A stretch of 23,954 nucleotides of DNA. It comes from a virus. Under the pieces are notes generated by a model. The model did no database searches and was not told where the DNA came from. It was given only the letters and a program-made list of their open reading frames with translations. The stretch is taken from the IMG/VR virus record IMGVR_UViG_3300025112_000191, positions 1 to 23,954 of that record; one strand, given 5' to 3'. Position 1 is the first letter of the stretch; each line of letters starts with the position of its first letter. This document shows positions 590 to 20,398 of the stretch, piece by piece. Both the position numbers and the translations under genes were made by a program.

Positions 590-2029
590 GTGAACCTTCG
601 CGACCTAAGAGACGAAATCAACTCAGCGTTGGATTACAACCCCGATCTGAAGCAGTACGATGACAACCTGACGCGAGTCATCAACCGCCACTACTTGCAG
701 GTCTCCAGCCAGTACCAGTGGCTCTTTATGCAGAAGCGAGCGCTACTCATGCTCAGGGCCGATATCGACGGCAGCAGCACTGATACCCTCACTTCTACCG
801 GAACCCACGTTGTGACCCTGCCCATTACCGAAGGAGCAGGCATTAAGAACCTGCCCGAGGATATCGTGGGCCAAACGCTCGTTGTAAACAACGCTACATT
901 TCAGATCACTCGTCAGCATAATGCGCGAGAGTTTGTTGTTGATCAGCAGGTTCCGTCTGGAACATACACAAGCTGGACAATCAGGTACAACTCTTACCCG
1001 ATGCCGAGGGATTCTGTTGAGGTTTTGGGCGTTATGGACCGAGGCATAACGACCACTGAGACTATATCTTTTGAGTCTGACTCAACAACAACAACTCAGA
1101 CTGCCCCAAATCGGGGCCGGTTTATGTTTCTTGATGCTCGAAAAGAAGAATATCTGTACCTTGACCGGGTGGGCACTGGCGACCCGTTTGTCAGCGTTGA
1201 AGAGATGCACGCGAATCTTCCGCCTCCAGACTTTGCTCCGAGCCTTAGGTTAAAGACGGCGGGGGGCGGCCTGACATCGGTCGTTCGAAATGCAACCTAC
1301 GAGTATTGCTATACATTTCTGTATGCCGGAATGGAGAGCCCGCCCTCGCCTGTCGCAAGCTTAGACACAACAACCGACGAGAGTGATTCTATTGTTGTTC
1401 TCATCGAGAAGCTGATGGATACGTCCGCTAAATTGTTGACGCCATCGAACACGGGTAGAGTGAAGAAGATCTACCGTCGATTCTCTCGTGATAACGTCAG
1501 TGATGTTCCAACCTCACGGCTTGTTTCAGGCATGGGCCCGTGGAGGCACATCGCCACCGTAGGCGAGTCAACGACGAGTTTTATAGACGACGCCGATGAA
1601 CTGACCGATAAGACGGTTGCCGGTGAGACCTCTTATGACGGCTACGTTGATCCGTCTGGTGAGTTGTTTCGTGTCGATAGGCTCAATGAAATAGGGCCTC
1701 GCCAGTATCTGCGGTTCTGGAATACACCCAATAGTGATTACTTCGTCGAGGCCCGATACCATCGGAGACCTTTTCGGCTGGTAAATGATGCCGATGCTCC
1801 TGAGTGGCCTGTTCAGTACCATCACTACCTTGTGTACGCAGCGCTCAAAGACATCTGCATGCAGCACGGTATGACGAGCAACAGCCAGTTGTACGATGGC
1901 AGGGCAAAAGAGCTTATGGAGCGCATGAAGTCTAAGTACCTAAGCCGTACAGACCGAATGCATATCCGCAGAGGGTTCGATCGAGCCATGGCTGATCGCG
2001 AGCGCTTTGGCATCCCGAGTAAATCATGA
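590..2029 (+). CDS. Tail tubular protein A / adaptor-like protein (T7 gp11-like)
   Basis: A 479-residue protein starting at GTG. The N-terminal 55 residues are helical with an MNLRDLRDEINSALDY opening, a pattern common in podovirus adaptor proteins. The C-terminal part (about 365-460) has an EARYHRRP segment, a PEWPVQYHHYLVYAALKD segment and an amphipathic helix, which also fits adaptor proteins that join the portal to the tail nozzle. It is far longer than the roughly 200 residues of T7 gp11. The extra length is largely a beta-rich insertion at about 225-345 (YEYCYTF, AGMESPPSP, KKIYRRFS, ATVGESTTSFIDDADE) that resembles a Fn3-like phage module and recurs in the next gene. It overlaps the next gene by four bases (ATGA), implying translational coupling. 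Head-to-tail connector is the preferred role; identity is inferred from pattern and gene order. Confidence 0.65.
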   Translation: MNLRDLRDEINSALDYNPDLKQYDDNLTRVINRHYLQVSSQYQWLFMQKRALLMLRADIDGSSTDTLTSTGTHVVTLPITEGAGIKNLPEDIVGQTLVVNNATFQITRQHNAREFVVDQQVPSGTYTSWTIRYNSYPMPRDSVEVLGVMDRGITTTETISFESDSTTTTQTAPNRGRFMFLDARKEEYLYLDRVGTGDPFVSVEEMHANLPPPDFAPSLRLKTAGGGLTSVVRNATYEYCYTFLYAGMESPPSPVASLDTTTDESDSIVVLIEKLMDTSAKLLTPSNTGRVKKIYRRFSRDNVSDVPTSRLVSGMGPWRHIATVGESTTSFIDDADELTDKTVAGETSYDGYVDPSGELFRVDRLNEIGPRQYLRFWNTPNSDYFVEARYHRRPFRLVNDADAPEWPVQYHHYLVYAALKDICMQHGMTSNSQLYDGRAKELMERMKSKYLSRTDRMHIRRGFDRAMADRERFGIPSKS

Positions 2030-4275
2030 ACACTCAACGCCTTATTGTTGAGCGGCTGCGTGGTATTGATCAGCGATACTACACCCGCCCTGAGTCTGCC
2101 TCAATCATCGAGGAGATGACTTGGGATTCCTATGATGGATGGAAGACCGCTGGTGGCTACGATCTGGTCACACAAGACTTGTATGACTGGAATAGGGCTG
2201 TGTCTGAAGATGGAATCAGGATCACATCGCTGCACAACTATTCAAGAGGGTCCAGCTACAATGAGATCATTTTTGAAAACGACCAGGGCCAGCTTTGTAA
2301 ATTAGACATCGGCAAGCTTAAGGCTGGCGCCGCCGACCCGTTTTCTTTTCTGAAAGATGAATCCAACAGGGTGTTTGATGGCCGCGAACCAGAGACCGAC
2401 GACACAGGAACCGCCAATAACAGCAGAAAAAGGTTCGTTCCGAGGTCTAACGGAGTCGGGACACAGTCCTGCACGTTCGGTGGGCGACTGTACTTAGTTA
2501 ATGGTGTGGATGAGCCCATTGTTTACGACGGAAAGCGGGCTTGTAGGGCTGGTTTTTTCGAGAAGCCAGCGCAGCCGAAGGCAGACGTTGTAATCAGGGC
2601 GTACCACAACGAGTGGATTGCCTCTGGAAAGCACACAAGCGACTATTTTTTGGGCACCAAGATCAAAGGCCAGGGCCTCGGAAGCCTGAAGCCTAAGGGT
2701 GTCAAGGATAAGAATACCGCCGAATTCATCGATGGCAAAGTCTGTGGATATCAGTACCGTGTGACATTCGTTAATAAGCGCTCACAAGAAAGCGAGATGT
2801 CCGAAGTCAGCGACATGTGTACGTTTGAGTGCGCTGCTGGCAAGAAGCGCTTCGTTCATATCCAGTTGCCGATTGGTGATAACTCCTGCGTTGCTAGGCG
2901 CGTTTATCGGACACGGGACCTGTTGGATGATTTTGGCAACCCACTCGGGCCAGAGGTCGGTCAGAACTATTACTTTGTGAGAGAGATCCAAGACAACGAG
3001 ACCACTGATTTTGAAGACGGCCTCCCTGACTCCAGCCTGGGTGCGCTGACCGATGATTACGATTTCGGCAGGTATCCGATGCAGGCCAAGTTCATTGCAT
3101 CATTTAAAAACTCAATCTTTCTGACTGGTGGCCCAAACAACCTCTTGTTTTACAGCGCCAGCGGCATGCCAGAAGTATTCCCTCAGCGTAACATTATCGA
3201 CCTGGGAGACTCTGACGCCGGCAAGATCACGGGCATGTACGCCAGCACCAACTCGTTGGTAGTGTTCAAGGAGTTTGGCGTCTATCTGATCAAGGCCACA
3301 CCAAGCGGCGGCTTTACCTACCAGACGATATCTCGCGACATTGGGTGTATAGCTCCAAACTCAATCAAGGACGTTCCTTTCACCGGCCTCGCATTTCTGT
3401 CGCACAAGGGCGTTCATGTGATGAAGGGGTTTCTGGAGGACTCAAACTCTCCAACAGAGATTGTAAACCTGAGCACTCCCATCAAAGAAATAATGGATAG
3501 GCTGTGCATCACTGCTTCATACGGGGCCGTTTCTTGCCTGAACAGAAGTGACAAAGAATACTGGCTGTGCGTTCCGACCATAGGCGAAAAAAACAACCTG
3601 CTGCTCGTGTGGCACTACGAGGTTGGTGCATGGAGCATTAGAAACAACTACCCCATGTCGTGCGCCATAGAGACCAGGGGTGCGTCTACGTCTGTTTTTT
3701 TTGGAAGCCATGACATTAGAATGCCTGGAATCTTTGTCTACACTCCTTTTTATAGGAGAAAAAACGAGATTGGCTCAACTGTAACAATAGAGCGCGGGGT
3801 GGGAGAAGACGTTCGTAAATCGATTTTAGACTACCCTGTTTATGAAACCGTACCGTTAAAGCTAAATGGAGTTTATAGCGGAGCCCATGTTTCATACATA
3901 AATATTTATGCCGTTGCTTTTGGTAACGAGCCAATAAAGATGAACTTCAAGATTAACCGAAATCAGGTGGTTGTTTTAGATTCCAACAAGGGCCGTACAC
4001 AGCAACACACCGATATGAGCGAAAAGCTTGACGTGTACGGCACCGCTCGATTTGACGAGGCTTCCTTTGGCTACCATCGTCCAGTCGTTATCCGGTTTGA
4101 TGTTTCTCACTCCCACAAAACCCTGACCACCGAGTTTGCGATTCGAATCCTTCAAGACATTGAAAATGAGTTTCCAAACAGAATCATGATTGTCGGTTAT
4201 TCAGTCGATGCCAAAATGGGCGAGCAGAAGAACATTCGGGCCATGACCGATGTACTGGGTTCAAATAGGAGATAA
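2026..4275 (+). CDS. Tail tubular protein B / nozzle-like protein (T7 gp12-like)
   Basis: A 749-residue protein starting inside the stop of the previous gene (ATGA). It carries repeated blade-like segments expected of the beta-propeller nozzle of short-tailed phages: GRLYLVNGVDEPIVYDGK at about 154-171, FIASFKNSIFLTGGPNNLLF at about 356-375, ITGMYASTNSLVVFKEFGVY at about 400-420, and an IGCIAPNSI ... GLAFLSHKGVHVMKG block at about 440-468. These alternate 'look up a value / is it shown' strands are typical of podovirus gp12-like proteins, which form the tube through which DNA leaves. A beta-sandwich module at about 240-340 (YQYRVTF, ESEMSEVSD, RRVYRT, FVREIQDNETTDFED) resembles the insertion in the preceding adaptor-like protein. 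The last 250 residues are beta-rich. No enzymatic motif is visible. Its stop (TAA 4273-4275) overlaps the ribosome site of the next gene. Confidence 0.7.
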   Translation: MNTQRLIVERLRGIDQRYYTRPESASIIEEMTWDSYDGWKTAGGYDLVTQDLYDWNRAVSEDGIRITSLHNYSRGSSYNEIIFENDQGQLCKLDIGKLKAGAADPFSFLKDESNRVFDGREPETDDTGTANNSRKRFVPRSNGVGTQSCTFGGRLYLVNGVDEPIVYDGKRACRAGFFEKPAQPKADVVIRAYHNEWIASGKHTSDYFLGTKIKGQGLGSLKPKGVKDKNTAEFIDGKVCGYQYRVTFVNKRSQESEMSEVSDMCTFECAAGKKRFVHIQLPIGDNSCVARRVYRTRDLLDDFGNPLGPEVGQNYYFVREIQDNETTDFEDGLPDSSLGALTDDYDFGRYPMQAKFIASFKNSIFLTGGPNNLLFYSASGMPEVFPQRNIIDLGDSDAGKITGMYASTNSLVVFKEFGVYLIKATPSGGFTYQTISRDIGCIAPNSIKDVPFTGLAFLSHKGVHVMKGFLEDSNSPTEIVNLSTPIKEIMDRLCITASYGAVSCLNRSDKEYWLCVPTIGEKNNLLLVWHYEVGAWSIRNNYPMSCAIETRGASTSVFFGSHDIRMPGIFVYTPFYRRKNEIGSTVTIERGVGEDVRKSILDYPVYETVPLKLNGVYSGAHVSYINIYAVAFGNEPIKMNFKINRNQVVVLDSNKGRTQQHTDMSEKLDVYGTARFDEASFGYHRPVVIRFDVSHSHKTLTTEFAIRILQDIENEFPNRIMIVGYSVDAKMGEQKNIRAMTDVLGSNRR
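4267..4271 (+). promoter_or_regulatory. Ribosome binding site choosing the ATG at 4277
   Basis: AGGAG (4267-4271) stands five bases before ATG 4277-4279. An upstream in-frame ATG at 4250 has no such site and would overlap the nozzle gene by 26 bases, so 4277 is preferred. The motif is made from the last codons of the nozzle gene, so the two genes are tightly packed. Confidence 0.75.
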
Positions 4276-7226: not shown

Positions 7227-7640
7227 ATGGCTGTTGAAGACTACGCATTGTCGATGGGTTCTGGGGCGCTGAGCGGTGCCGGCACAGGTGCCGCGTTTGG
7301 TCCCTGGGGCGCGGTTGCTGGCGGAGTCATCGGCGCTGGCCTGGGCTTTCTTGGTGCATCTCTGGCCGACAAGCAAGAAGACGAGGCTGGAAAATTAGCC
7401 CAACGACAAAGGCGCAGAGAAAAGAAACTCAGAGCCAAGCAGCGAAGCGTAGAGCGTAGGGCGCTGGCACAGCAAACTGGGGCGGCTGCTCGTGGGGCCA
7501 AGGATGATATGACCATTCCTTCTCCTCGGGTGTCCACAGCCGACATCGCGATGCAGCAGAGCATGGCGATTGGAACCGGAAGCCCGTTTGATACATACAT
7601 TCTTCGAACGTATGGTCAGCCGCAGAGCAAAACGACATAG
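7227..7640 (+). CDS. Small glycine-zipper internal virion protein candidate
   Basis: 137 residues with GGTAGGA (7214-7220) before ATG 7227. Residues about 10-46 form a Gly/Ala-rich hydrophobic segment with repeated GxxxG and GxxG spacings (GAGTGAAFGPWG; AVAGGVIGAGLGFLGAS). It is followed by a strongly basic helix (about 49-78, rich in R, K and Q), then a Pro/Ser/Ala region. A single glycine-zipper membrane segment next to a basic region is a frequent pattern in small podovirus ejection proteins, the group that includes T7 gp14, which inserts in the host outer membrane. It is shorter than T7 gp14 (196 residues). Its position after the appendage genes and before coiled-coil and giant proteins supports this. 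Homology to gp14 cannot be claimed; a scaffold or membrane-active lysis role is an alternative. Confidence 0.5.
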   Translation: MAVEDYALSMGSGALSGAGTGAAFGPWGAVAGGVIGAGLGFLGASLADKQEDEAGKLAQRQRRREKKLRAKQRSVERRALAQQTGAAARGAKDDMTIPSPRVSTADIAMQQSMAIGTGSPFDTYILRTYGQPQSKTT

Positions 7641-7648: not shown

Positions 7649-8662
7649 ATGGTAAAGAAAGCAGATCCATCATCGTCAGAAGGCTTGAAACTAAGCGAAG
7701 AAGACCGGGACGCGCTTGCCCTTGAGGATGCGTTCTACGAAAAGCAGTACACTAGGGGCACTTTAATTGGGGCCGGTTCTGACTATTCGGCAAATGTTTT
7801 TGATTACATCAATCGAATCGGTGGAGCGAAGCTTCTTACAGAGCTTGCAACCAAGACGAGCAAGAGGGCGCAGGATATTATAGATACTGCCGGCGAGGGC
7901 GCAGAAGAACGCCTTGAGACCGCCCGTGGCGCGAAGATGGCTGCAGCGCGGGGCGCCCTTGACACTGCAGCAAAGATGGCGGCCATGGACCCTACCGGCA
8001 CTGCGGCAATAGAGCTTACCCGGAAGGGCGCTCAGATGGTTCAGGCCGGTTCAGATATGAGCGCAGAAGAAACAAGAGAAATGGAGCGCTCCCTTGAGGA
8101 GAGAAAGATTGGCGAGGAAATGAAGACTGAAGCCGAGCAGCTAAAAATGAAAGGTAAGCACGACAAGCAAACTGCTCGCCTACAACTAGCCAAGGATACC
8201 ATCGCAAGCGCAGCTACTCTGGGGGCCGCGCTGAAGCCCAGTAGCTACGAGGCAGGGCTGGAAAGAAAGGCCGCCCGTGGTGAAGCGAAATCCTTGAGAC
8301 AAACTAAGAGGCAAAAGAAGCTTGCTGTGAAGATGGGCACAGCCCAAACTAAAGACATCAAGGCTAAGGTCTCAAGTGGAGAAATGACCAAAGAGGAAGG
8401 GGATAAGCTTCTTGCCCAGACTCTAAAACTTCGGCAAAAGAAAAACGTGTTCGGTAAAACTCGCATGGAGAGGTATAAAAAAGCTCAAACCAGGAAAGTA
8501 GCAGGACTAGAGCAACAGGCAGCAGCCGATCAAAGCCTTGATGAGTTGTTCAAGGCAAAAATGGCTAAGTTCAATGCAGTAATGGGCCAGAGAGCAGCCG
8601 AAAGAGCCAAGCTCACCCCAGCGACGGAGCTTGCCGACACCATGACGCCCAAAGTTAAGTAG
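7649..8662 (+). CDS. Coiled-coil, Lys/Ala/Glu-rich internal virion protein candidate
   Basis: 337 residues, AGAGG ribosome site at 7639-7643. After a short acidic N-terminus and a compact region (about 30-65), residues about 70-330 are almost entirely predicted helix: long runs of A, E, K, R and Q with few Gly or Pro, as in coiled coils. The C-terminal third is strongly basic (several KK and RxxK stretches), which could contact packaged DNA. No signal peptide, membrane segment or enzyme motif. Position within the ejection block suggests an internal core protein that enters the cell with the genome, in the place where T7 has gp15; this is inference from order and composition only. Confidence 0.45.
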   Translation: MVKKADPSSSEGLKLSEEDRDALALEDAFYEKQYTRGTLIGAGSDYSANVFDYINRIGGAKLLTELATKTSKRAQDIIDTAGEGAEERLETARGAKMAAARGALDTAAKMAAMDPTGTAAIELTRKGAQMVQAGSDMSAEETREMERSLEERKIGEEMKTEAEQLKMKGKHDKQTARLQLAKDTIASAATLGAALKPSSYEAGLERKAARGEAKSLRQTKRQKKLAVKMGTAQTKDIKAKVSSGEMTKEEGDKLLAQTLKLRQKKNVFGKTRMERYKKAQTRKVAGLEQQAAADQSLDELFKAKMAKFNAVMGQRAAERAKLTPATELADTMTPKVK

Positions 8663-8670: not shown

Positions 8671-9243
8671 ATGCCATGGGTCAATGGCCGATACGTTCCA
8701 AGAAAAATAGCCAATACGGAAGCGTCAACACCGTCCCAAGATGAAACGTCTATTTACCGGGGCCCAGTAGCCCTTGAAGAAGTGCAGATTGAAGACGGCT
8801 TCTTCACGGAGTCTCTGCTCAGCACAAAGTTTGTTGAAGGCTCATTTACGGCTGCAATCCTCAAGAGGCTCCTGCCCGAGGGGGTGATCTCAGTTGCCAA
8901 CGGGATGAGGTCTTTGTTCTCATCCGGCTTCGTAAATAGAGACTTGATTGCCGCAGATGCAGTCAGTGGCTCTAAAATCAGCAACCCGATTAAGTTGTCC
9001 ATCATTAGCGGCGGTGCCGCCGGAACCCATACGGTCACTGGAATAAGGACTGGAGACGAACTTATTTCTGTATTAGAGCAGAACGGTACATCCGGCTTGT
9101 TAACTGATCTTACAACCGAGTTTGCGATTGCTACATCTGATACAATCACAAACTCAGGTGGGACTGCCACAAGCGGCGATAACCTTATAGTTTTATACTT
9201 AGACAAAACAACTGACCTGACTTTAATGGCAGGTTCTTTATAG
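8671..9243 (+). CDS. Small phage structural protein
   Basis: 190 residues; AGGGG (8661-8665) overlaps the previous stop and gives a five-base spacer. The N-terminus MPWVNGRYVPRK and the middle (FVEGSFTAAILKRLLPEGVI, then FVNRDLIAADAVSG) are followed by a beta-rich C-terminal module (about 108-190: GTHTVTGIRTGDELISVLEQ, then TTEFAIATSDTITNSGGTAT). This last pattern recurs in many small structural proteins of environmental phages that I have seen; its exact function is not established. It sits between the coiled-coil and the peptidase genes, so it may be co-packaged, or it may be a decoration or tail protein whose gene lies in the operon. No enzyme motif or membrane segment. Confidence 0.45.
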   Translation: MPWVNGRYVPRKIANTEASTPSQDETSIYRGPVALEEVQIEDGFFTESLLSTKFVEGSFTAAILKRLLPEGVISVANGMRSLFSSGFVNRDLIAADAVSGSKISNPIKLSIISGGAAGTHTVTGIRTGDELISVLEQNGTSGLLTDLTTEFAIATSDTITNSGGTATSGDNLIVLYLDKTTDLTLMAGSL

Positions 9244-9253: not shown

Positions 9254-12200
9254 ATGCCCTTTACCGATGAGCTTCGAAAGAAGATTGGACCCTCCACTGA
9301 CGTATGGGTGAAGGCCGTTGAGCGAGACTACCAGGACCCAGTCAAGCGGCTGCTCGCTATTCGTAAAGAGATCGCTACGCTGTCGAATCCGAGGAACAGA
9401 AGTCGCGTTCGAGGCGATAGGTCTCACGACGCGATGCTTCGATTGATCTTGAAGTATGAGACCCTGCAGAACAAGACTCACGAAGCCCGCAACAAAACCC
9501 GGAAAAAGATTGAAGACGATCTTAATACCTATACCAGTGATCGAGACACCATGCTTAAGGCTGTGGTCTTGGCCTTTTCGGATGAAAACAAAGTAAAATC
9601 TGTCGCTAGAGACCTGAACAGTAACTGGAATAAAAGCACTTTAGAGGCGCTATTCGGGCCGAAAGGCTGGAAGATATCAGATAAAAAGGGCCCCAATGAG
9701 GCAACCTTTATGGGCTTATCTAATCTTCGAGCCTATGTTGACGATCCAACAAAGGCTAAAATCGATAGCCTTATGGCCGAATATGTTAAAGCTAAATATC
9801 CGGGTGACGAACGGTTCGATGACTTGAATTCCATCAATCCGACAGAATGGCTCGATAAGTACTACCCTGACGTGAGTACCACAAACAAAGAAGCGCAAGC
9901 TATGCGGCAGGAGGTTCTTTCAAACCCAGAAGCCTGGTATGGGCCCAAGGGCGTTGCCGGTAAGCTTCATGACGAGGACCTCTCTGGATATATCGATTAC
10001 AGCGATAAAATCAAGAAGTACCAGAACTTCGTCGATGGCCAACTCGCCATAGACACCATTCCGGCAACAAATACGACCGACGAGGAGAAGACCGCGTTCG
10101 TCAGTCAAGTCGGGCCGTTTGCTGTTGAGAACGATAAAATCAAGCTCCAAGAAGGCTTGCCCCCCGAAGCTAAAAAGGAAGCCGTCGAGATTCTTGCGAA
10201 CAATGGCTTGAAGGAAGGCGGCAAGTACACCGATTTCGTTAGGTCTAGTACGGTACAGAATGGGCTGGCCGGAATGATGACTGCGGCCTCTACGAACGCC
10301 AGAATAGATAAGCGAATCGAGGAGTTGAAGTCGCAAGAAGCTGGAATGTCGGAAATGGCCGTCCGTGCTGGTCGCCTTTCGCCCACCCAGCTTTCCGTGC
10401 TCTACAACCCACTGTTCCCTCGCACCGGCTTTAGAAGGTCTGCAGGGTATGGGCTACAGAAAAGAGTTCAGCGCCTTCGCCGTGAGGCCGATGAGCCAGT
10501 CGAGGCAGTGGCCCCTCAAGCTGAGGCTGAGGCTGCGCCTGAGGCTCCTGAGGCTGAAAAAGAGTCCTCTGGCGTGCCAATTATTCCGGCAGTTATCAAT
10601 CGAATCAAAAAGGCCCATGAAAGGGCCAGCACCGCTAGCCCAGAAGATACAGCGGAAGCTGACGAGGAGTTGAGAAGCGCCATTGAGGGCTTCACGGGCC
10701 TTCCCAAGGATATTCAAGACAAGTTTCCTATGGCTTTCGTTACTGCTGCGAAGGCTTCATTGGAGCCAATGGAAGGCAAAACAGATTCGCCTGAAGGTCG
10801 TCGAATGGAGTTGGAGAAGGGCATACCAAGCCTAGATGACTCTGCAATTACGACACAAACAATCGGGGAGTACGTTGCTGATGTTTCCGGTCGCGGGAGT
10901 GCTGCTGCACTCAAAGAGACATCAGATATGGCTGCTTTCTTGAACCATCCCGATTCTCTTGGTGAGGGGTTCAGCGATGTTGGTCGAGAAGACATCATAG
11001 GATCGATCGGAAGTGATTTTTTGGAGGTCATGAACCGTGGCGAAGATGCCAGCAAGACTGACCTCATTGATGTCTTTGAGCGATCCAAGACCTTGAGCCA
11101 AGAAGATCGTCCTGACTTTTTTGATACCGCAAAGTACGGTCGGTATGAATCCATTGACCGATTCGTAGCAAAGATGGATGCGGACGGAGAGGCCCCAGAA
11201 GATGCCCCAGAAGATGCCCCAGAAGATGCCCCAGAAGATGCGTCCGGTCTTGATCCGACCGACTACTTGACGGGTAGAAAGCAAAGGCGATTTAAGAAGC
11301 GTGGGAAAAAAATAGAAGAAGCCAGAAAAGCAAGAGAACTCGAAGAATCGCAGACGGCGTTTGCCGAAGCGCAACGAGCTAACGCGAGGCGTGAAGGTAA
11401 GGCGGTCTGGGATGACCCCCCTGAGAGCCAAGAATCTGTTGGCGCGGTTGCTGATGCGCCGATGACCGAAGAAGACCGCGCCGTAGTGGAAGGCTTGAAA
11501 ACGATGGAGCCCCCTAAGGACCCGCAAGAGGTTGCTGGGGAAGAAGTCTCCGAAGAAGAAATCCGCGAGATGGACATTGCTGCCCACGACGAGCGGCCCG
11601 GTCAGGCCCCACACGGCACCACGTTCCCGGCTAGCGCACCAACAGTTACTCCTGTGGAAACAATCGCGCCTGAAGGAGAGTCAGTTGAAGAAGCGGAGAT
11701 GCCTCCTGCTCAAATAGAACGAGACGATGAAATGATCGCCAAGGCTGACGCCAAGGCCGAGGAGTACGACCCCACACCAGAACAGCTTGCGAGAGATGAT
11801 GCCGCTATTTCTGCGGAGTATGACCCCACACCAGAACAGCTTGAAGGGGATGACGCCGCTATAGCGGCAAGCCTTGAGCGAGACCGACAACGATCACGCG
11901 ATAGGGCTCTGGTCGGAACACTACAAGATCTCTACAGTGACGCCAAGACTGGCAAGGTCACTGGTGAAGACGCAAACATTGCTCTGGATAAGATCGCAGG
12001 AGTCTGGAAGCTTGATGATAAGAGGCTGGCAAAACTCAAGGCCAACCTGAATCAGTTCTTGCCCCCCGACCAGCGGACTGAGCCAGAGGTTGAGCCAGAG
12101 GCTGAGCCACCAAAGAAGCTGAGGCTTTCGATGCCGTCCCAATACAATGTTGTGACATCGTCCACGTTTGGCCCGCGAGAATCCCCCACTACCGGGAAAG

Positions 12201-12625
12201 TAAAACCACACGAGGGAGTAGACATCAGGGCCAGAGAGGGCACCCCGGTATTCTCAGTGAAAGATGGTGTCATCTCCAGGGCCATTCACGACGAGAAGCG
12301 GGGCGGCAACGCTGGAATACACATTTATGTTGACCACCCGGATGGAACTCAGACTAGGTATTACCACGGCAGCGCCATACCCAGTACGATTGTCGAGGGC
12401 ACGAAAGTCACCGCTGGCATGGAGATCATGAAGGCCGGGAATACGGGTGACTCAAAGGATGCTCACCTGCACCTAGAGATATTGAAAAATATCGATGGCG
12501 TGATGACGCAGGTTAACCCTATTGAGGAAATGCCAGAATTGTTTAAGCAAATGGAGTTCCGTGACGGAAGTCCGGTTATCAAAAGTGATGTGCGTACAGC
12601 AGGTTCCGGTGCGGTTAAAAAATAG
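9254..12625 (+). CDS. M23-peptidase internal virion (ejection) protein
   Basis: 1123 residues; GAGG at 9245-9248. The N-terminal ~400 residues are mostly helical. A long acidic, Pro/Glu/Ala-rich, low-complexity middle (about 415-440 and 640-900) contains in-frame tandem repeats. The C-terminal ~150 residues form an M23 (lysostaphin/LytM-like) zinc metallopeptidase: HEGVD gives the HxxxD pair (His986, Asp990), YYHGS holds His1038, and HLHLEI gives the HxH pair (His1071, His1073). All expected ligand and catalytic positions appear intact. M23 enzymes cut peptide cross-links in peptidoglycan. In a virion protein encoded in an ejection block, this domain would open the wall for the tail or ejection tube, as the gp16 transglycosylase does in T7. 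It has no signal peptide, which argues against a classical secreted endolysin. Confidence 0.75.
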   Translation: MPFTDELRKKIGPSTDVWVKAVERDYQDPVKRLLAIRKEIATLSNPRNRSRVRGDRSHDAMLRLILKYETLQNKTHEARNKTRKKIEDDLNTYTSDRDTMLKAVVLAFSDENKVKSVARDLNSNWNKSTLEALFGPKGWKISDKKGPNEATFMGLSNLRAYVDDPTKAKIDSLMAEYVKAKYPGDERFDDLNSINPTEWLDKYYPDVSTTNKEAQAMRQEVLSNPEAWYGPKGVAGKLHDEDLSGYIDYSDKIKKYQNFVDGQLAIDTIPATNTTDEEKTAFVSQVGPFAVENDKIKLQEGLPPEAKKEAVEILANNGLKEGGKYTDFVRSSTVQNGLAGMMTAASTNARIDKRIEELKSQEAGMSEMAVRAGRLSPTQLSVLYNPLFPRTGFRRSAGYGLQKRVQRLRREADEPVEAVAPQAEAEAAPEAPEAEKESSGVPIIPAVINRIKKAHERASTASPEDTAEADEELRSAIEGFTGLPKDIQDKFPMAFVTAAKASLEPMEGKTDSPEGRRMELEKGIPSLDDSAITTQTIGEYVADVSGRGSAAALKETSDMAAFLNHPDSLGEGFSDVGREDIIGSIGSDFLEVMNRGEDASKTDLIDVFERSKTLSQEDRPDFFDTAKYGRYESIDRFVAKMDADGEAPEDAPEDAPEDAPEDASGLDPTDYLTGRKQRRFKKRGKKIEEARKARELEESQTAFAEAQRANARREGKAVWDDPPESQESVGAVADAPMTEEDRAVVEGLKTMEPPKDPQEVAGEEVSEEEIREMDIAAHDERPGQAPHGTTFPASAPTVTPVETIAPEGESVEEAEMPPAQIERDDEMIAKADAKAEEYDPTPEQLARDDAAISAEYDPTPEQLEGDDAAIAASLERDRQRSRDRALVGTLQDLYSDAKTGKVTGEDANIALDKIAGVWKLDDKRLAKLKANLNQFLPPDQRTEPEVEPEAEPPKKLRLSMPSQYNVVTSSTFGPRESPTTGKVKPHEGVDIRAREGTPVFSVKDGVISRAIHDEKRGGNAGIHIYVDHPDGTQTRYYHGSAIPSTIVEGTKVTAGMEIMKAGNTGDSKDAHLHLEILKNIDGVMTQVNPIEEMPELFKQMEFRDGSPVIKSDVRTAGSGAVKK
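11192..11239 (+). repeat. Four tandem 12-bp units encoding (Ala-Pro-Glu-Asp)x4
   Basis: Four copies of a 12-base unit (GCCCCAGAAGAT) run head to tail, in frame, in the acidic linker of the M23 protein; the fifth Ala follows. The copies are identical at the DNA level, so the array looks recent or slippage-prone. Changes in copy number by whole units would lengthen or shorten the linker without a frameshift. Confidence 0.9.
11761..11868 (+). repeat. Two tandem 54-bp units (EYDPTPEQL-type repeat)
   Basis: Two adjacent 54-base units encode an 18-residue repeat, EYDPTPEQL followed by two variable residues and DDAAI. The unit boundary falls at 11814/11815. The copies differ at several bases (for example codons for Tyr and Asp), so the duplication is older than the 12-bp array. 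It lies in the same disordered acidic region of the M23 protein. Confidence 0.85.
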
Positions 12626-12631
12626 TCTTTT

Positions 12632-12635
12632 GGAG
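12632..12635 (+). promoter_or_regulatory. Ribosome binding site deciding the GTG start at 12641
   Basis: GGAG (12632-12635) stands five bases before GTG 12641-12643, only seven bases after the stop of the M23 gene. No ATG in this frame competes close by. This fixes the giant protein's start. Confidence 0.75.
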
Positions 12636-12640
12636 ACATT

Positions 12641-15600
12641 GTGGCAGAGCCCGAAGATATCGAAGAAAGCAAGACTGAGCTTGAGAATGACCTTGAGCTA
12701 GAGCCTATTGAAAACCCCATTGATGACCCGATGGAAGCCCAGGCTCTCGAAGACATCATTGTCGATCAGACGGGTGACGACAGGCTTGAGCTAAGAGCCA
12801 GCAAGACGGTCCCCCTCGTTGATAAGGTCGATGAGCCGCCTCATGTGGCGGAAGAAGCCGCTGATTTTGGAAGGCTGGGGTGGAAGGTCGCCCTTGCGTC
12901 TGCCATTCGAGAAGGGGACTCAAGCCTCACTGACGCTCAAGTTGCGGAGTTGGTCGATAAGGAAGCGTCGTCCATACGGTCTGTTGGCGGTCCTTCTGGT
13001 GGGCTTATAAACGCTCGCCTACTTGTAAACGCCCCAAGCACCTATATGTATCAGGTTGCTGAGGCCGCAGAGATGGCTCTTATGGAGTCTGAAGAAACAG
13101 TGTTTGATGGAATCAAGGGCTTCTTTTCGGCTCCTCCACCAGAAGTGCTGACTACGGCAGAACAACTGGTTCAGGAGCGCGTGATTGACGAAGAAGGCCG
13201 GTACCTCATGACCCCGTTCAGTAAAGGGCAGCGAAGCGTTGACCTGCCTGGAGAGAGCCTTGACTTCACGGTCACCCCCGAGGGGGTAGATGTAGCCTCA
13301 TCTGTTGTTGGTGGTGTTCTTGGATACAAGGGCGTAAAGAAAGGCGCTAAGGTGGGTGCCGCCATCGGTGGAAAACTTGGAACACCGGGCAAGGTTATCG
13401 GTGCCGGAATAGGCGGGACCATCGGCGGCCTGGGTGGCTTCGTGATGGCTAAGATGGGCACAAACGTTTTGGTTACCGAGAGGCTGGACTACCAAGGTGG
13501 CCCAGAGAAAGACTTTCTTGATGCGCGACAGGGCACGGAGGCCCTCTTTGATTTCGCAAAGGCATTGAACAGTTCTGCCGGGGTATTGCATGATCTTTCA
13601 GATTGGTTTGAGATCGCAAGCGCTGAAGCCAGAAGCGCATTTATTGCCAGGTCTATCGCAGCAGCAGATGCATTCGGTGTTTCTGAAAAAGCCGGTAAAT
13701 CTAAGGCGGTTACTGATTTTATAGAACACACAAAAATGGTCTCTAAGGGCGAGGTTGTGCCGGTTCTTTCGGGGCCATTTGCTCTGGCTTCTATCCTGTC
13801 TCATCCATATGTTGGTGATGCGATCAGAGAGCAAATGGAGCGCCGTGGCTTTACCGAGGCCGAAACATTTGCTGTTGAAGTGTTTACGCCGATTCCAGAG
13901 GAAGGCGAAAAAACGATCCACCAGTACATGGCAGACGTAGTCCTTGCAGTCCATGAAGAACTAGAGGCATCAGAAGAATTTCGTCAGGCAAAGAGCCTTT
14001 TTCGACAACAGGAAATCGAAGATCTGAATAGACAGCTTTCCAAGGAAAGGCGCACCCGTGAGCCCGAATACAGCGACTGGCCCATCATTCAATACTTTGA
14101 AGACATTGACCTTGGCGTGCATTCTCCGTCCGACAAAGAGATAAAGCTATTTGTAAAGGATAAGATTGGTAGCTTGTCCTACAATGACTTGCCCCCAGAC
14201 CTAAAGGGTAAACAGCCTGATGTAGATAAGTTCACTGAGTTTGTAAAGCTTGACTTGTCTATGGGCGGATTAGAGCGCCACGGAAACCCCAAGCTCGATT
14301 CAGTCATTGAGGCCATACAGAAGGACGACAACAAAGAGGCAGTTCAGAAGCTTTTGAACACGCTGCCGATTGGTCTTATTGATCAGTTGAGGTCGTCCAA
14401 CAACGTTGGGATATACCGAAAGCCATCGGCTGGCGCTGTGGCGAAGTGGGCACGCTCCACTATAAAGTATCTTGAGAAGGAGGTTGGTCGAAAGATAACC
14501 CGCCCGGTGCAGCGGAATCTTCACCCGCAACTTCTCAGCAAGGGCAGCAGCATGCACTACTCCCCGTCTGTATTCGGTGAAATGCTGCAGTGGGCTGTAT
14601 TGATGCCGACCACCGTCGCTGAACAAGACATAGCGATTGACTTTAAAGATTACCCGGAGAGCCTTCTCCCGATCGTTCAAAAGCTTGGGCTTCCAGCAGT
14701 ATTGGGAACACCAGCCGGTGTAGACTTTGCGCTAGGTCTCGGTATCAGAAACCCACTATCTACCGCCGAGGAGCGAATCAGGGCGCGGCGCAAGACAACC
14801 ACTGGCGGCTTTCAGGTTGGGTATGAAGAAATAATGCTGGCCCAAGGCTACGCAAGAGGTAGCTGGGAGTTCAACCTCGCCCAGAACATTGGGCTCATCA
14901 TGGATATGGTGCCCCAAGAGAAGTGGGCTGGCCGCGCCGTTGCAAACGTAGGCAGGCTGGGAATGAATGTTAAGCCTGCTGCTAAAGTATTTATGGCCAC
15001 TAAAGAATTTAAGGCCACCCACCCAGGCATTAGGGCTGGGCTAACAAAGCGAAGATTGCTCCAGAACACTGTTTTCGACAAAGCTGAAGATCCGACCGTA
15101 CAAGCACACAAGCTATGGAAAAAGGGAGCACAGACGGAGCTTAACGAGGGGCTAAATCCGCTCGACCGGCTGGATGCTGCACAAAGAGAGCAGCTTGCAG
15201 ATATTCTGGTTGCAACGGGGCGAAACCCAGAACAAGTTTTTGCTGCCTTTGAGCAAGCGGCACGAGTCACTAAAAAAGCCCGCAGAGCCTCTCAGAAGAT
15301 TATTCGGTCGGTTGGCACCAACGATATCATCGTTCTCAAGAATAGCGCCGAATACCAGTCGATTTTATCTGACCTCAACGGCCTCGTTCAGGCTGGCCAC
15401 ATGCAGGCTGCTGAGGCCGCTCGAATTATGGCTCATGTTGAGGCCCAGGCCATCCGAGTTGCTGACGCAATAGATACGCCCTATGGGTCGGCAAAAGATG
15501 TCCTGGGCGGTCTGAGAGTCACTATGGGCCGTCCTGCTGGCACTGGAGCCGGTGTTGTTGTTCGGCTAGTGGAGGATGGTGACCCAAGCGCACCGCGCAG

Positions 15601-18600
15601 ACAGGGCGTCCCGCTCGGTTACTTTGAATACGACCAGCGTACACACAAGGCGGTCATCAACCTTTTTCAGGGGGGAGACCTTAATACGCTCTGGCAAAAC
15701 GATGGCCACTTTATGGCTACCCTGATGGGTAGAGAGTTCACCGATAAGCTCATCCGGTACTTCGATAATGAGTTGGCGCCCGACGGGACTAGAAGGCTGA
15801 CTGACACAGGCAACGTTCAGTTTGCTGAAGCCTGGATGCATTACCGCAGGGTTCGCGACAACCCGAACGGCTTTGTGCGCAGGCTGATGGGCGAGCTTTG
15901 GACTTCATTGCATAATCTCTGGTCTCGCCTTCGCAAAAAGCCTGGTCTTTTGCCGAGAGAGGTTCGACAGTACTGGGACCTTGAGTTTGGTGAACTGCCT
16001 AAAGATAGACGCCTTGTGCAGGCGATTAGTGGTGCCGCCCTTAACAAGAGGCCCAAGCACACTAAGCTTGCGGCGACTCAAGAGGAAAGAATCCTTAGAA
16101 GCCCAGATGCAGACAAGGCCCGTAAGCGTGTCGCAACAGATTTGGGCTACGACGCTGAAACGATGCACGCCCTTCTCGGTGATCGAAAGCAGACGCGAGT
16201 CACGGTGGTCAGGGATGCGGCTACTGGGCAGTCAAAGAGGGTCGTAGAGCGCAACTATGTTCCACGCGAATACGACGCGATTGATGCTGGGCTTGAAGTC
16301 TTTGCATTGCTTAAAACTGCCGACTTTCGTAAATCATTATCGAAAAGCAAATTAGTCCCCATTGGTAGTGGTCGTTATCACGTACCGGCATCTATTCTGA
16401 AGACCGTCATGGATAAGGTTGCTGGCAGGTTTATGGATGCCTTGGGCGTGGACCCTGCAGCAATCGCCAAGAGGATTTACCAGCCCGATCGCAGCGGAGT
16501 GAACGCTCTCGCAAGCAGAAACACCCTCCCTAGCGGCGTTACGGTGGGAGATGTAATTGCGTTTAGGGAGCGATTCAAGGCGCGGTATATTGAATCGAAC
16601 GAACAAATAAACCAACGAGTACGGGAAACTGACTTCATAGTCTTAGATGAAAGGCCTCGGGCAGGGCTGAAGACCCTCATTCAGGAGATCTCAGATCAGC
16701 CAGAAGCGGACCTGATCCCGTTCTCGTTGCTTGACCCTGATGCAAACCTGAAGCTGATATCAGTTGAAGAATACACAACCATTCGTAATGTCCTGACTGA
16801 CATCACGGCTACACCGCTGAATCGCCGCAACAGGAACATGGCTGATCCCGGCTACCTGATGTCGATGTCTCGATTTTTCGCAAATCGCAAACTGACCGAG
16901 GCCATTGGCGAGATTTTCAAAGTTATATCTGACCTGACGAGAAAGAAGAAGGAGATCCCGGTGGGGGCCGCTGATCCTCACTTTGTGAATATTTTAGAAG
17001 GCTATAGCCGAATGGTGATGAATTCCCCCAAAGCGATCATACGGCTTGCCAATGATCCTGACTTGAAGGCCATTGATACCGTTTTTGGATTTTTTGAGCA
17101 CAACCTGTCTTTGCACACACCAAGGGTCAGCCTTTCCAATGTTCGCCGTCTTTTTAGCATTGTGGGCTTGCTGGATGGGTCCATCAGGCGAATGGAAGCC
17201 AAGGCTGCGGCCAGGGTTGCTGGCGAGGTAGAGGCCGGGAAGCCGATCACCGCCACATACGATCCGTTTGATATAGACGCTCCCGCTGGTGGAGGCGTAA
17301 CGCTTAGGCAGATCGGCAGAAATCTTTCCATGATACAAGATCTTCTTGGGGATCAGTATGGAATGACGGCGCTTGAGCGAGAGTCGCTGACCCGGCTTCG
17401 TATGTTCAATGACCGTCTTAACGCTGGAGATGCGCGTAAGCTTACCCAGGCAGAGCGCTCAGCCGTCGCTGATTCTATCCAGGTCATTTACGAGGGGCTG
17501 AAAGAAAAGCAGCAATATGTTGAAACATTCTCAACTAGAGTGTTTGAAATAGTTTTAGCAATAAAGGAGGCTTCGCAGTTTGACTTAACTATTCCGGCTA
17601 AGATTGATATCTATAATAAGTTTTACACTGGAGATATTGCTGGCATTCTTGATATCGATACTGCAAAGAAAATCAGGCCACTTCCAGGCGCTCAAACGAA
17701 ACCAAGAACCGTATTTGCCGACAAAAGGTTCCCTGCAATATCTAAGGGCATAAACGCGGCATTGCAGGTTGCTGACAAGCTGATGGGCACTAGGTATTCA
17801 ACCAAGACACCCGACCTCAATCAAAACTTGATTTCGTTGATGGTGATGCTGAAGCTTGACGACATTCAGTTCGGTCTTGCGCGTGAGCTTGCTGAAGAAG
17901 GATACGACCTGTCTCGCAGGTCAATCACGAACAACCTAGACCTTAAAGGCGAGATCAACATAAGTAGAAGCAAGTACATCGATAGGGTGGTTCGTTATAT
18001 CGATAGGGCCCTGGCAAAGGCAGACGAGGTCTCCGGGTTCAAAGATCCGCAGAAGGGTCGCAAAGTTCGTGTCCCCAAGAAGCCGCCCAAGGAGATGTAC
18101 GGGCCAACAGAGGTCCCGCCTAAGTTAAAACCAGAGACATCAGGAAGGCAGGACCACGACGTAATCACCCGCCTCGACAAAGAGGCTCAACACGAGGCCG
18201 ATAGGATACTCCAGCGTGCTGGTATTAGAATTGACGAGGGCAGTGCTGAGATTGTGATGATTGGTGGAAAGGAATTTGTCCTGCCAAAAAACATGGTCGA
18301 TCAACTGGAAAGCTGGGTCCAAGAGACATACCCCAACGCCATATTCAAGAAGCACTGGGGCCGTAAGGGTCGCGCTGAATACCGCTTTGAGTCAAAGGAC
18401 CCCGCCAGCCAGGTCTCTGAGCGAATAACGCAGCATGTCAAAGGTGTAGCAAGAGATGTCATGAGGGTCGGAGAGTTCATAGTTTCTCCACGAACCTTCT
18501 ACACAGGTCTGCTTATTGGCACTGGCGGGTTGCCAATGATCGGCTACGGCATCGGCGTATTTATTGGTGGACTGAGCCAAGTACACCTCGGCCACGGCGC

Positions 18601-20398
18601 GTTGGCGGCGGCAAGAGATCTTGTTGAAGCGCCTGCTGCTGGTGCTCGGTTGGCATCAGAAGTGACCCCGATCGTTAGGGGCCTTACTGAGGCAGCAGAC
18701 GCAGAGGTCCCGTTTGTCTCGGGCGTGCTTGCAAGATTGTTTGGTGAGGGTGCCCACCGGCCACGCACCAAGCCCCTTGTTCTTGATGATGGCAGGATCT
18801 TCACGGCGGACATGATTGCAGCAAGCGTTGACCGGCATGGCTGGAAAAGTGCGTTTGCTGATGTTTTGGCCAACAATAATCTAATGGATGCCATGCATGA
18901 TCGGTTCAATAAGGCCAATGCTTCTTGGGCAACCGGTGCAATGTTTGCGCTTGCTGGCTTGCCGCTCGGACCACAGAGTGCTCTTATTAGTGGCGCATTC
19001 GGGGCAAGTGTCTCCTGGGCTGTGAAGCCTGGAAATATATTCAGTAAGACCCACAGGTTCTACAGGGAAACCTTCATTGCGTTTGATACCTACCTCAGGA
19101 TCAAGGTGCTGGTTCGAGAGCTTAAAAAGGGCGCAGACCTTGACCATGCAGCGCAAAAGACCAGAAACATCATGCTGGACTATTCGGACCTCAGTGAGGC
19201 TGAGGTGTCCTACTTTAAGAAATGGTTTGCTTTCTACACGTACTTCTCCCAGGCCAACAAGCTTTTGTTTAGATCCATTATGGAGCACCCAGACCGCGTG
19301 ATCACTCAGCTTAAGCTTGCTAGAGCGACTCAACTGAAGGTGACGGAGTCCAAGGACCCAGACCTTGTGCTGTCTCCGTGGGACAAATATCGAACATTCT
19401 TGCCCTTTGAGATACTGGGTCAGAAGTTCCGCCTGCCTTTCCTTCTTACTGGTGATTCGGTTGGGTTGTTAATTGAAATACTTACGTCGTTACCCTTCGG
19501 TGATGACGAGGCTACTAAAGAAGCGCGGGTGGCGTTCTTTGGGAGGCTGTCTCCGCAGATTGGTCTTGCCGCAGCGATAACATTTGATATTGATCCCGGC
19601 CTCGGATTTCCGCTTGAGAGGGCAACCCTTCAGGTGCCTGCCGAATTGATCGAGTTCGACCTAATGGTAACTGGTGGCGCCTTGCGCAACTATTTACAGG
19701 TTGAATATATAGAACCAGAAAACATCAGATACATATATGATGAAAAAGAAAAAAGAAGAATAAATGAGCGAAATATTGAAATGCCAGGAAGGGGTATATA
19801 TGTTGCGAAAAATACTGGTGGGTACTTATTCTTAATGAACTACCTGCAGACCCCCCTGACTGGCCGAATGGGTGACAACCTGTGGGCTCTTGCGCGGGCT
19901 AATGCCGGGATTACTGAAACAGGCATGGACGGCATCAAGGCCCTGAAGAACGCCCTTGGGGGCCAGCCGATACTGTCTCATGTCGGCGCCCTTCAAACTC
20001 TCGGCCTCGTAAAGGGTGATCCGGGCCGAGGAAGCGTCCACGACGGCGTCTTCATACCCGCCATCTCACCAACAGAGCCGGGGCTGGCTGAGCCTGGTTC
20101 ACAGGTCGCCATTCAGCGGGCCGACCAATTAACAACAGCGCCCCCCGCTGTTCTCAAGAAATACGGCGTTGCATACAAAAGCGCGGATGGGACAAAGTAC
20201 CATATTTACGCAGACCAGTTCTATCCTACTGAGCTTGGCAGAATCTTTGGCCTCTCTGCAGCCCCAGAAATGGATTACAGCAGAAGCTCCGGGTGGAAAT
20301 ATAGGCAGTATATAAAGGAGTCTGCTAAGAAAATTAAGAGCAATGAGGCAGCAAAAGCAGAGTTGGCGAGAACTAAACCTATAGACGACGAACAGTAG
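12641..20398 (+). CDS. Giant internal virion / large polyvalent protein-like ejection protein
   Basis: 2585 residues, GTG start. Features in order: acidic N-terminus; glycine-zipper segment at about 218-272 (VVGGVLGYKG; KVIGAGIGGTIGGLGGFVMA); long helical region; a possible zincin-like domain at about 960-1125, where TLWQNDGHFMATLMG (His1023) aligns by eye with the TLLHExGHxF site of phage large polyvalent proteins, followed by FAEAWMHY (Glu1063) and a Trp-rich amphipathic helix; more helical sequence; hydrophobic Gly-rich segments at about 1951-1985 and 2096-2128; then LDYSDLSEAEVSYFKKWFAF (about 2179-2198), a motif I associate with the C-terminal part of large polyvalent phage proteins. No lytic transglycosylase or RNA polymerase motif is seen. 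The role is likely that of T7 gp16: an internal core protein ejected with DNA to span the envelope. It is about twice the length of gp16. The assignment is from order, size and motifs; homology is unproven. Confidence 0.6.
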   Translation: MAEPEDIEESKTELENDLELEPIENPIDDPMEAQALEDIIVDQTGDDRLELRASKTVPLVDKVDEPPHVAEEAADFGRLGWKVALASAIREGDSSLTDAQVAELVDKEASSIRSVGGPSGGLINARLLVNAPSTYMYQVAEAAEMALMESEETVFDGIKGFFSAPPPEVLTTAEQLVQERVIDEEGRYLMTPFSKGQRSVDLPGESLDFTVTPEGVDVASSVVGGVLGYKGVKKGAKVGAAIGGKLGTPGKVIGAGIGGTIGGLGGFVMAKMGTNVLVTERLDYQGGPEKDFLDARQGTEALFDFAKALNSSAGVLHDLSDWFEIASAEARSAFIARSIAAADAFGVSEKAGKSKAVTDFIEHTKMVSKGEVVPVLSGPFALASILSHPYVGDAIREQMERRGFTEAETFAVEVFTPIPEEGEKTIHQYMADVVLAVHEELEASEEFRQAKSLFRQQEIEDLNRQLSKERRTREPEYSDWPIIQYFEDIDLGVHSPSDKEIKLFVKDKIGSLSYNDLPPDLKGKQPDVDKFTEFVKLDLSMGGLERHGNPKLDSVIEAIQKDDNKEAVQKLLNTLPIGLIDQLRSSNNVGIYRKPSAGAVAKWARSTIKYLEKEVGRKITRPVQRNLHPQLLSKGSSMHYSPSVFGEMLQWAVLMPTTVAEQDIAIDFKDYPESLLPIVQKLGLPAVLGTPAGVDFALGLGIRNPLSTAEERIRARRKTTTGGFQVGYEEIMLAQGYARGSWEFNLAQNIGLIMDMVPQEKWAGRAVANVGRLGMNVKPAAKVFMATKEFKATHPGIRAGLTKRRLLQNTVFDKAEDPTVQAHKLWKKGAQTELNEGLNPLDRLDAAQREQLADILVATGRNPEQVFAAFEQAARVTKKARRASQKIIRSVGTNDIIVLKNSAEYQSILSDLNGLVQAGHMQAAEAARIMAHVEAQAIRVADAIDTPYGSAKDVLGGLRVTMGRPAGTGAGVVVRLVEDGDPSAPRRQGVPLGYFEYDQRTHKAVINLFQGGDLNTLWQNDGHFMATLMGREFTDKLIRYFDNELAPDGTRRLTDTGNVQFAEAWMHYRRVRDNPNGFVRRLMGELWTSLHNLWSRLRKKPGLLPREVRQYWDLEFGELPKDRRLVQAISGAALNKRPKHTKLAATQEERILRSPDADKARKRVATDLGYDAETMHALLGDRKQTRVTVVRDAATGQSKRVVERNYVPREYDAIDAGLEVFALLKTADFRKSLSKSKLVPIGSGRYHVPASILKTVMDKVAGRFMDALGVDPAAIAKRIYQPDRSGVNALASRNTLPSGVTVGDVIAFRERFKARYIESNEQINQRVRETDFIVLDERPRAGLKTLIQEISDQPEADLIPFSLLDPDANLKLISVEEYTTIRNVLTDITATPLNRRNRNMADPGYLMSMSRFFANRKLTEAIGEIFKVISDLTRKKKEIPVGAADPHFVNILEGYSRMVMNSPKAIIRLANDPDLKAIDTVFGFFEHNLSLHTPRVSLSNVRRLFSIVGLLDGSIRRMEAKAAARVAGEVEAGKPITATYDPFDIDAPAGGGVTLRQIGRNLSMIQDLLGDQYGMTALERESLTRLRMFNDRLNAGDARKLTQAERSAVADSIQVIYEGLKEKQQYVETFSTRVFEIVLAIKEASQFDLTIPAKIDIYNKFYTGDIAGILDIDTAKKIRPLPGAQTKPRTVFADKRFPAISKGINAALQVADKLMGTRYSTKTPDLNQNLISLMVMLKLDDIQFGLARELAEEGYDLSRRSITNNLDLKGEINISRSKYIDRVVRYIDRALAKADEVSGFKDPQKGRKVRVPKKPPKEMYGPTEVPPKLKPETSGRQDHDVITRLDKEAQHEADRILQRAGIRIDEGSAEIVMIGGKEFVLPKNMVDQLESWVQETYPNAIFKKHWGRKGRAEYRFESKDPASQVSERITQHVKGVARDVMRVGEFIVSPRTFYTGLLIGTGGLPMIGYGIGVFIGGLSQVHLGHGALAAARDLVEAPAAGARLASEVTPIVRGLTEAADAEVPFVSGVLARLFGEGAHRPRTKPLVLDDGRIFTADMIAASVDRHGWKSAFADVLANNNLMDAMHDRFNKANASWATGAMFALAGLPLGPQSALISGAFGASVSWAVKPGNIFSKTHRFYRETFIAFDTYLRIKVLVRELKKGADLDHAAQKTRNIMLDYSDLSEAEVSYFKKWFAFYTYFSQANKLLFRSIMEHPDRVITQLKLARATQLKVTESKDPDLVLSPWDKYRTFLPFEILGQKFRLPFLLTGDSVGLLIEILTSLPFGDDEATKEARVAFFGRLSPQIGLAAAITFDIDPGLGFPLERATLQVPAELIEFDLMVTGGALRNYLQVEYIEPENIRYIYDEKEKRRINERNIEMPGRGIYVAKNTGGYLFLMNYLQTPLTGRMGDNLWALARANAGITETGMDGIKALKNALGGQPILSHVGALQTLGLVKGDPGRGSVHDGVFIPAISPTEPGLAEPGSQVAIQRADQLTTAPPAVLKKYGVAYKSADGTKYHIYADQFYPTELGRIFGLSAAPEMDYSRSSGWKYRQYIKESAKKIKSNEAAKAELARTKPIDDEQ

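What the first reader, a model, noticed from the sequence alone, without database searches (positions are those of the whole stretch)
12641..20398. 2585-residue giant ejection-protein candidate, a third of the window
The sequence shows one uninterrupted 7.8-kb frame with a convincing GTG start. It follows a small glycine-zipper gene, a coiled-coil gene and an M23 peptidase gene, and precedes fibre and holin genes. In T7 this place belongs to gp16 (1318 residues), whose ejected product spans the envelope. The product here is about twice as long and lacks a recognisable transglycosylase. It may combine DNA-ejection channel functions with additional domains.
Basis: partly seen in the sequence, partly recalled or inferred. 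Interest (0 to 1): 0.6.

Follow-up and report, generated by a model that had tools for sequence, protein, structure and literature searches.

The report
Cargo-free giant phage ejection protein
A short-tailed virus of bacteria carries a very large protein that is almost certainly injected into the host cell with the viral DNA; in related viruses the same protein has a slot filled with different enzymes and a working protease next to it, but here the slot is empty and the protease is dead, so only the delivery chassis remains.

Summary
The ORF is real: 2585 codons, intact, GTG start confirmed by relatives, under purifying selection. It is the last gene of a five-gene ejection block (4,372 aa with no cysteine; about 52 expected from the neighbouring genes), placed as gp16 is in T7. 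I found 19 homologues (918–3,860 aa, one of them partial) in IMG/VR relatives, mostly at the same locus, and none in GenBank phages. There is no detectable homology to T7 gp14/15/16 or to an RNA polymerase. One domain (aa 988–1118) is homologous (profile E 6e-13) to the zincin metallopeptidase of BPP-1 Bbp10-type giants, which lie in the same gene order. All large length differences sit at one site just before this domain: 0 to about 1,400 extra residues, including an ADP-ribosyltransferase, GNAT acetyltransferases and extra zincins. The window protein has an empty site and a dead zincin (QNDGH for HExxH, third ligand lost), while its sister (L110) has about 740 extra residues and HENGH. The layout matches BPP-1-type giants and N4 vRNAP. 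Best reading: a Cys-free ejection chassis of the polyvalent class, secondarily stripped of cargo and protease. Observation confirmed; interpretation right on role, but T7 gp16 is not the closest relative. Virion presence and ejection are inferred.

The parts
12641..20398 (+). giant ejection-protein gene, 2585 aa, no cysteine
   Evidence: open frame; homologues; purifying selection; Cys count
13292..13468 (+). glycine-zipper, membrane-like segment (aa 218-276) in the N-terminal part
   Evidence: hydropathy; weak matches to Gly-rich segments of phage tail/lysis families; conserved glycines
15527..15592 (+). cargo slot (aa 963-984), empty here; 0 to about 1,400 residues inserted in homologues
   Evidence: alignment
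15602..15994 (+). zincin-type metallopeptidase (MPTase) domain, degenerate (aa 988-1118)
   Evidence: hhalign to BPP-1-type giants E 6.2e-13 local, 2.1e-8 full profiles
15695..15709 (+). lost HExxH: QNDGH (aa 1019-1023); sister L110 has HENGH
15815..15817 (+). lost third metal-ligand position V1059 (Glu in all homologues with intact HExxH)
16058..20395 (+). C-terminal module of nearly constant length (aa 1140-2585), mostly helical in a low-confidence model
18506..18598 (+). conserved hydrophobic GLLIGxGGLPM segment (aa 1956-1986)
19049..19315 (+). C-terminal motif iDxYxRI...LDYSxLSxxE...FAFYTYFxQAxKL...NPDRVITQLK (aa 2137-2225), similar to the C-end of N4-type vRNAP
   Evidence: hhalign E 3.1e-5 local (0.015 full length), other segment pairs at or above 0.097
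9254..12625 (+). 1123-aa ejection-block protein with C-terminal M23 peptidase, no Cys
   Evidence: Pfam PF01551 1e-18; synteny; Cys
8671..9243 (+). 190-aa protein of the block, no Cys, conserved at the same place
7649..8662 (+). 337-aa charged, probably coiled-coil protein of the block, no Cys
7227..7640 (+). 137-aa glycine-zipper protein of the block, no Cys; like P22 gp7 C-end (E 4.8e-5, a Gly-rich match)
2026..4275 (+). tail nozzle / P22 gp10-like 'phage stabilization protein', marks a podovirus tail module
   Evidence: PHROG 511 8.8e-20; tblastn to annotated stabilization proteins

Best explanation
The gene encodes the largest internal-virion (ejection) protein of a podovirus. It belongs by architecture to the phage 'polyvalent' ejection giants (BPP-1 Bbp10 type; N4 vRNAP is built alike): an N-terminal part of about 950 aa with a membrane-like glycine zipper, a cargo slot, a zincin metallopeptidase domain and a helical C-terminal module of about 1,500 aa. 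Proposed working: the Cys-free chain is packaged with the DNA, leaves through the nozzle unfolded or as beads on a string after the small block proteins, the M23 partner cuts peptidoglycan, the N-part lodges in the inner membrane, and the C-part refolds at the cytoplasmic side and takes part in DNA entry. In relatives it also delivers enzymes from the slot, which their active zincin may process. In this phage the slot is empty and the zincin has lost its metal site, so the protein works as a delivery and channel chassis only. Shown from sequence: frame, synteny, Cys absence, zincin homology, motif loss, single insertion site. Inferred: virion location, ejection, membrane insertion, cargo release, lack of enzyme activity.
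For: Conserved order nozzle - three fibre-like genes - Gly-zipper - coiled coil - 190 aa - M23 - giant in relatives; same order tail protein - internal virion protein - transglycosylase - giant - fibre in BPP-1 and its kin. Block of 4,372 aa has 0 Cys; the other window genes have 41 in 3,458 aa, so 51.8 expected, P(0) about 10^-22.6; giants 1 Cys in 54,945 aa; T7 gp15/16, P22 gp7/16/20, N4 gp50/51/52 and 11 vRNAPs 0 Cys, a feature already linked to passage through tail and periplasm for vRNAP (PMC3715699). Zincin domain homologous to Bbp10-type giants, E 6.2e-13. Almost all length variation of the homologues sits in the slot: N-part 855-1043, slot 38-1418, zincin to end 1368-1572 aa; Bbp10-type 1214-1387, vRNAP 1054-1313. 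Slot contents: ART-PolyVal 8.3e-14, GNAT 4.6e-8, GNAT-like, N4-type zincin. N4 vRNAP cryo-EM: membrane NTD, RNAP, HExxH C1, helical C2 without known fold (PMC12633501).
Against: No virion proteomics. Structure models are of low confidence and match nothing. N- and C-parts show no convincing sequence homology to Bbp10-type or N4 proteins apart from the zincin and a short C-end motif. The cargo-free junction is seen in one contig only.
Confidence: 0.72

Rival explanations
1. It is a true gp16-type protein of the T7 lineage, enlarged and with its transglycosylase lost, working purely as inner-membrane channel.
For: Same place in the late operon; Cys-free like gp16; M23 partner supplies the hydrolase missing from it.
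Against: No profile similarity to T7 gp14, gp15 or gp16; its one recognisable domain is the Bbp10-type zincin, not a gp16 domain.
Confidence: 0.12
2. The giant still delivers an activity of its own, e.g. an unrecognised effector domain in the N-part or aa 1140-1940, so it is not an empty chassis.
For: Large conserved regions of unknown fold; most of the chain matches no family.
Against: The same regions are shared by all homologues whatever their cargo, as expected of a chassis.
Confidence: 0.25
3. The empty slot is an assembly or deletion artefact of one metagenomic contig.
For: No second contig holds the exact junction.
Against: The frame is intact; at least ten other homologues also lack large cargo; the zincin has three active-site replacements while staying the best conserved region against the sister (pN 0.154), which an artefact would not give.
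Confidence: 0.05
4. It is a tape-measure or other tail protein and not an internal head protein.
For: Length and helicity; weak Gly-rich matches to tape-measure families (E 1 or above).
Against: P22 gp10-like nozzle; order of genes as in BPP-1 and other short-tailed phages.
Confidence: 0.04

Closest known systems
BPP-1 Bbp10-type giants (Bordetella phage BPP-1, Caulobacter phage Jess A, Cobetia phage Carin1, Acinetobacter phage Ab9, Limnohabitans phage DC33 and others)
   Same: Gene place behind internal virion and peptidoglycan-hydrolase genes and before fibres; (nearly) Cys-free; homologous zincin domain; variable stretch before it, constant C-part after it; ART and GNAT-like cargo shared between DC33 and relatives of the window protein.
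   Different: Rest of the chain not alignable with confidence; C-part about 200-300 aa longer; in the window protein HExxH is lost and cargo absent; hydrolase partner is M23, not a transglycosylase.
N4 virion RNA polymerase (gp50) of Schitoviridae
   Same: Ejected giant without Cys; N-part of about 1,000 aa, cargo, HExxH domain, helical C-part of 1,050-1,300 aa; similar C-end motif (PMC12633501).
   Different: No RNA polymerase domain in any homologue or in the fetched relative contigs; zincin of another subfamily; overall sequence unrelated at this sensitivity.
T7 gp16
   Same: Position in the late operon, zero Cys, presumed inner-membrane role.
   Different: Half the size, transglycosylase at the N-terminus, no detectable similarity.
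Phage-type polyvalent proteins (Iyer et al. 2017, PMC5512222)
   Same: Zincin MPTase hub; relatives combine ART, GNAT and extra MPTases.
   Different: The window member has no recognisable active domain.

Membership tests
BPP-1 Bbp10-type polyvalent giant | homologous zincin (MPTase) domain | tested here: met
   hhalign E 6.2e-13, prob 97.9
BPP-1 Bbp10-type polyvalent giant | intact HExxH active site | tested here: not met
   QNDGH and V1059 in the window protein; core motif intact in 6 of 19 aligned family members
BPP-1 Bbp10-type polyvalent giant | gene order internal virion protein - peptidoglycan hydrolase - giant - fibre | tested here: met
BPP-1 Bbp10-type polyvalent giant | homologous C-terminal module | tested here: inconclusive
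   best E 0.005; length similar
polyvalent proteins (PMC5512222) | two or more recognisable effector domains in one chain | tested here: not met
   none in the window protein; single or several cargo domains in relatives L117, L121, L130
N4 virion RNA polymerase | single-subunit RNA polymerase domain | tested here: not met
   hmmsearch with 11-sequence profile, no hit; controls E below 1e-270
N4 virion RNA polymerase | absence of cysteine | tested here: met
T7 gp16 | sequence or profile similarity to gp16 | tested here: not met
T7 gp16 | N-terminal lytic transglycosylase | tested here: not met
podoviral ejection protein (functional class) | present in the virion and leaves it on infection | not testable with these tools
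   needs proteomics of full and emptied particles
podoviral ejection protein (functional class) | no cysteine, as in T7 gp15/16, P22 gp7/16/20, N4 gp50/51/52 | tested here: met

The most novel reading that the evidence does not exclude
Ejection giants of short-tailed phages share one modular delivery chassis with a single cargo bay directly in front of a self-processing zincin; the protease is kept mainly while there is cargo to process, and lineages such as the window's phage have dropped both, keeping the dead protease domain as a structural joint. HExxH occurs in 6 of 6 family members with 500 or more slot residues but in 3 of 13 without (Fisher 0.003; on the tree about 4:0 independent pairs, p 0.125, so not significant once kinship is counted).
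Probability: 0.4. Interest if true: 0.7.

Novelty: new variant of a known kind. Interest (0 to 1): 0.55.

Why it matters
It gives a natural minimal form of a giant protein-delivery chassis. Comparing it with its sister L110 (64% identical, same scaffold, about 740 extra residues and an intact protease motif) makes directly testable what the zincin in N4 vRNAP and Bbp10-type proteins is for, and marks a site where phages add or drop injected enzymes. Cysteine absence over a whole gene block is a simple predictor of ejection proteins where homology fails.

Tried and rejected
P0001 as a direct query in GenBank phages, plasmids and IMG/VR: no match; relatives were reached through the nozzle and 479-aa genes. 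Pfam, PHROGs and PDB sequence searches of the giant and its pieces: nothing significant. AlphaFold2 on aa 430-1480 and 1481-2585 gave pLDDT 67 and 61; Foldseek against PDB (both) and BFVD (first model) gave no match at E 0.001. T7 gp14-16 and P22 gp16/20 homology rejected. RNA polymerase in the giants or elsewhere in the fetched relative contigs rejected. A DNA-glycosylase-like (HhH-GPD) look of part of the L110/L121 insert came from memory and found no support in Pfam or PDB. Completeness of G011 by end repeats: not shown. One alignment was too diverse for a collection scan. Co-loss of cargo and protease is not significant when kinship is counted.

Full report
OBSERVATION. Window 12641-20398 (+) is a single open frame of 2585 codons, with a GGAG ribosome site before the GTG. 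The window is itself an IMG/VR virus record of 23,954 bases. Direct searches find no relative in GenBank phages, plasmids or, by exact peptide patterns, in IMG/VR, and no Pfam, PHROG or PDB family.

RELATIVES. The neighbouring nozzle gene (2026-4275; PHROG 511 internal virion protein 8.8e-20; like P22 gp10-type 'stabilization' proteins) and the 479-aa gene brought in dozens of related contigs of up to 75 kb. Of 35 contigs 18 hold a homologue of the giant; a further scan added four loci (L154, L155, L156 and the partial L158). In all, 19 homologues are used besides P0001 (one of them partial), 918-3860 aa. Gene order around the giant is conserved. pN/pS against L110 shows purifying selection along the whole chain.

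EJECTION BLOCK. The five genes 7227-20398 hold 4,372 residues and no cysteine, whereas the other window genes have 41 in 3,458; about 52 would be expected. The giants together have 1 Cys in 54,945 residues. The known ejection proteins behave the same: T7 gp15 and gp16, P22 gp7, gp20, gp16, N4 gp50, gp51, gp52 and eleven vRNAPs have none (T7 gp14 has one). For vRNAP this was noted before and tied to passage through tail and oxidising periplasm (PMC3715699; PMC5795418). Some other virion proteins, e.g. N4 coat and T7 and P22 scaffold proteins, also lack Cys, so the signature is strong for large proteins and blocks but not exclusive.

DOMAINS. Alignment A1 shows that several relatives have LWHENGHFMATLMG...GHEQFAEAW where the window protein has LWQNDGHFMATLMG...GNVQFAEAW. 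A profile of the giants matches a profile of eight BPP-1 Bbp10-type giants over exactly this domain (HESGHFF...HEQFARGFE...EVRxVxDR) with E 2.1e-8 on full profiles and 6.2e-13 locally. [quoted passage not shown] So the domain is a zincin MPTase; in the window protein two HExxH residues and the predicted third ligand E1059 are replaced. The Glu is present in 6 of 6 family members with intact HExxH and 3 of 13 without (Fisher 0.003, not corrected for kinship). Yet the region is among the best conserved between P0001 and L110 (pN 0.154 in aa 1001-1200; 80% identity in aa 1001-1100), which suggests a structural role.

CARGO SLOT. All large insertions of homologues lie at P0001 aa 963-984, just before the zincin: N-part 855-1043, slot 38-1418, zincin to end 1368-1572 residues. 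Contents recognised: ART-PolyVal in L117 (8.3e-14), GNAT in L130 (4.6e-8), GNAT-like in L121, and in L119 a zincin stretch of the N4 vRNAP type (PHROG 2206, 3.4e-14; C1 profile 1.2e-10; tblastn to Litunavirus vRNAPs). Limnohabitans phage DC33's Bbp10-type giant shares both the ART and the GNAT-like stretch. In Bbp10-type giants too the zincin-to-end length is nearly constant (1214-1387) while the front varies from 797 to over 2,366 residues, and in vRNAPs it is 1054-1313. N4 vRNAP has just this order: membrane NTD, RNAP, HExxH-bearing C1, helical C2 of unknown fold (PMC12633501).

HISTORY. On a maximum-likelihood tree P0001 is the sister of L110 (starred support), and L121 with L122/L154/L155 forms the next clade. 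L110 and L121 have homologous cargo (38-74% identity per 100 residues) and HENGH; P0001 and L122/L154/L155 have neither. The simplest reading is cargo in the common ancestor and two losses, each with loss of the protease motif. Other cargo-free members (L113, L123, L126) keep HExxH, so the link is a tendency; with kinship counted it does not reach significance.

C-END. A 90-residue motif near the C-terminus (aa 2137-2225) matches the C-end of Schitoviridae vRNAPs (E 3.1e-5 locally, 0.015 full length; the segment pairs not holding both motifs gave 0.097 or more), in the same relative place. The N-part carries a glycine zipper and aa 1956-1986 a second hydrophobic stretch.

MECHANISM (inferred). 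By analogy with T7 and N4 (PMC8954989; PMC12633501) the small block proteins would form outer-membrane and periplasmic parts, the M23 protein opens the wall, and the giant passes last, placing its N-part in the inner membrane and its C-part in the cytoplasm. Relatives use the same passage to bring in host-modifying enzymes; the window's phage does not, so far as can be recognised.

VERDICT. Ejection protein: very likely. New, strongly diverged branch of the Bbp10/vRNAP-like delivery giants, in a cargo-free, protease-dead form: likely. Not T7 gp16, not an RNA polymerase.

Noticed in passing
window 20993-21418; L117 5553-5978, L119 12672-13100, L128 674-1105: The 141-aa product is 79-88% identical between phages whose giants share only about 21-25%: this gene seems to move between phages of the group independently of the ejection block.
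   Followed up: no
L121 6151-6840, L122 6763-7287, L127 11729-12316: The M23 peptidase is a separate small ORF between the 1,100-aa block protein and the giant, while it is fused to the block protein in the window.
   Followed up: partly
window 4250-7205: Three consecutive genes (362, 324, 297 aa) start with a similar 'EPDDLNxNF' / 'SADDFNEAF' like anchor but are not alignable by BLASTP; possible ancient spike or fibre-adaptor paralogues.
   Followed up: partly
L113 and L156: Two very close giants differ in the zincin motif, HENGH against YENGH, a recent loss of the active site.
   Followed up: no
L171 (Xanthomonas citri phage CP2 giant): A Bbp10-type giant also matches the N4-type C1 zincin profile (hmmsearch 9.8e-12), probably at its second HExxH (aa 926): the module crosses between vRNAPs and RNAP-less giants.
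   Followed up: no
L149 (PQ492659.1): Limnohabitans phage DC33 is filed in GenBank as Inoviridae, but its genes are those of a tailed podovirus of the BPP-1 type.
   Followed up: no
window 1-15: The record begins with a run of C (TCCCTCCCCCCCCC), perhaps an assembly edge.
   Followed up: no
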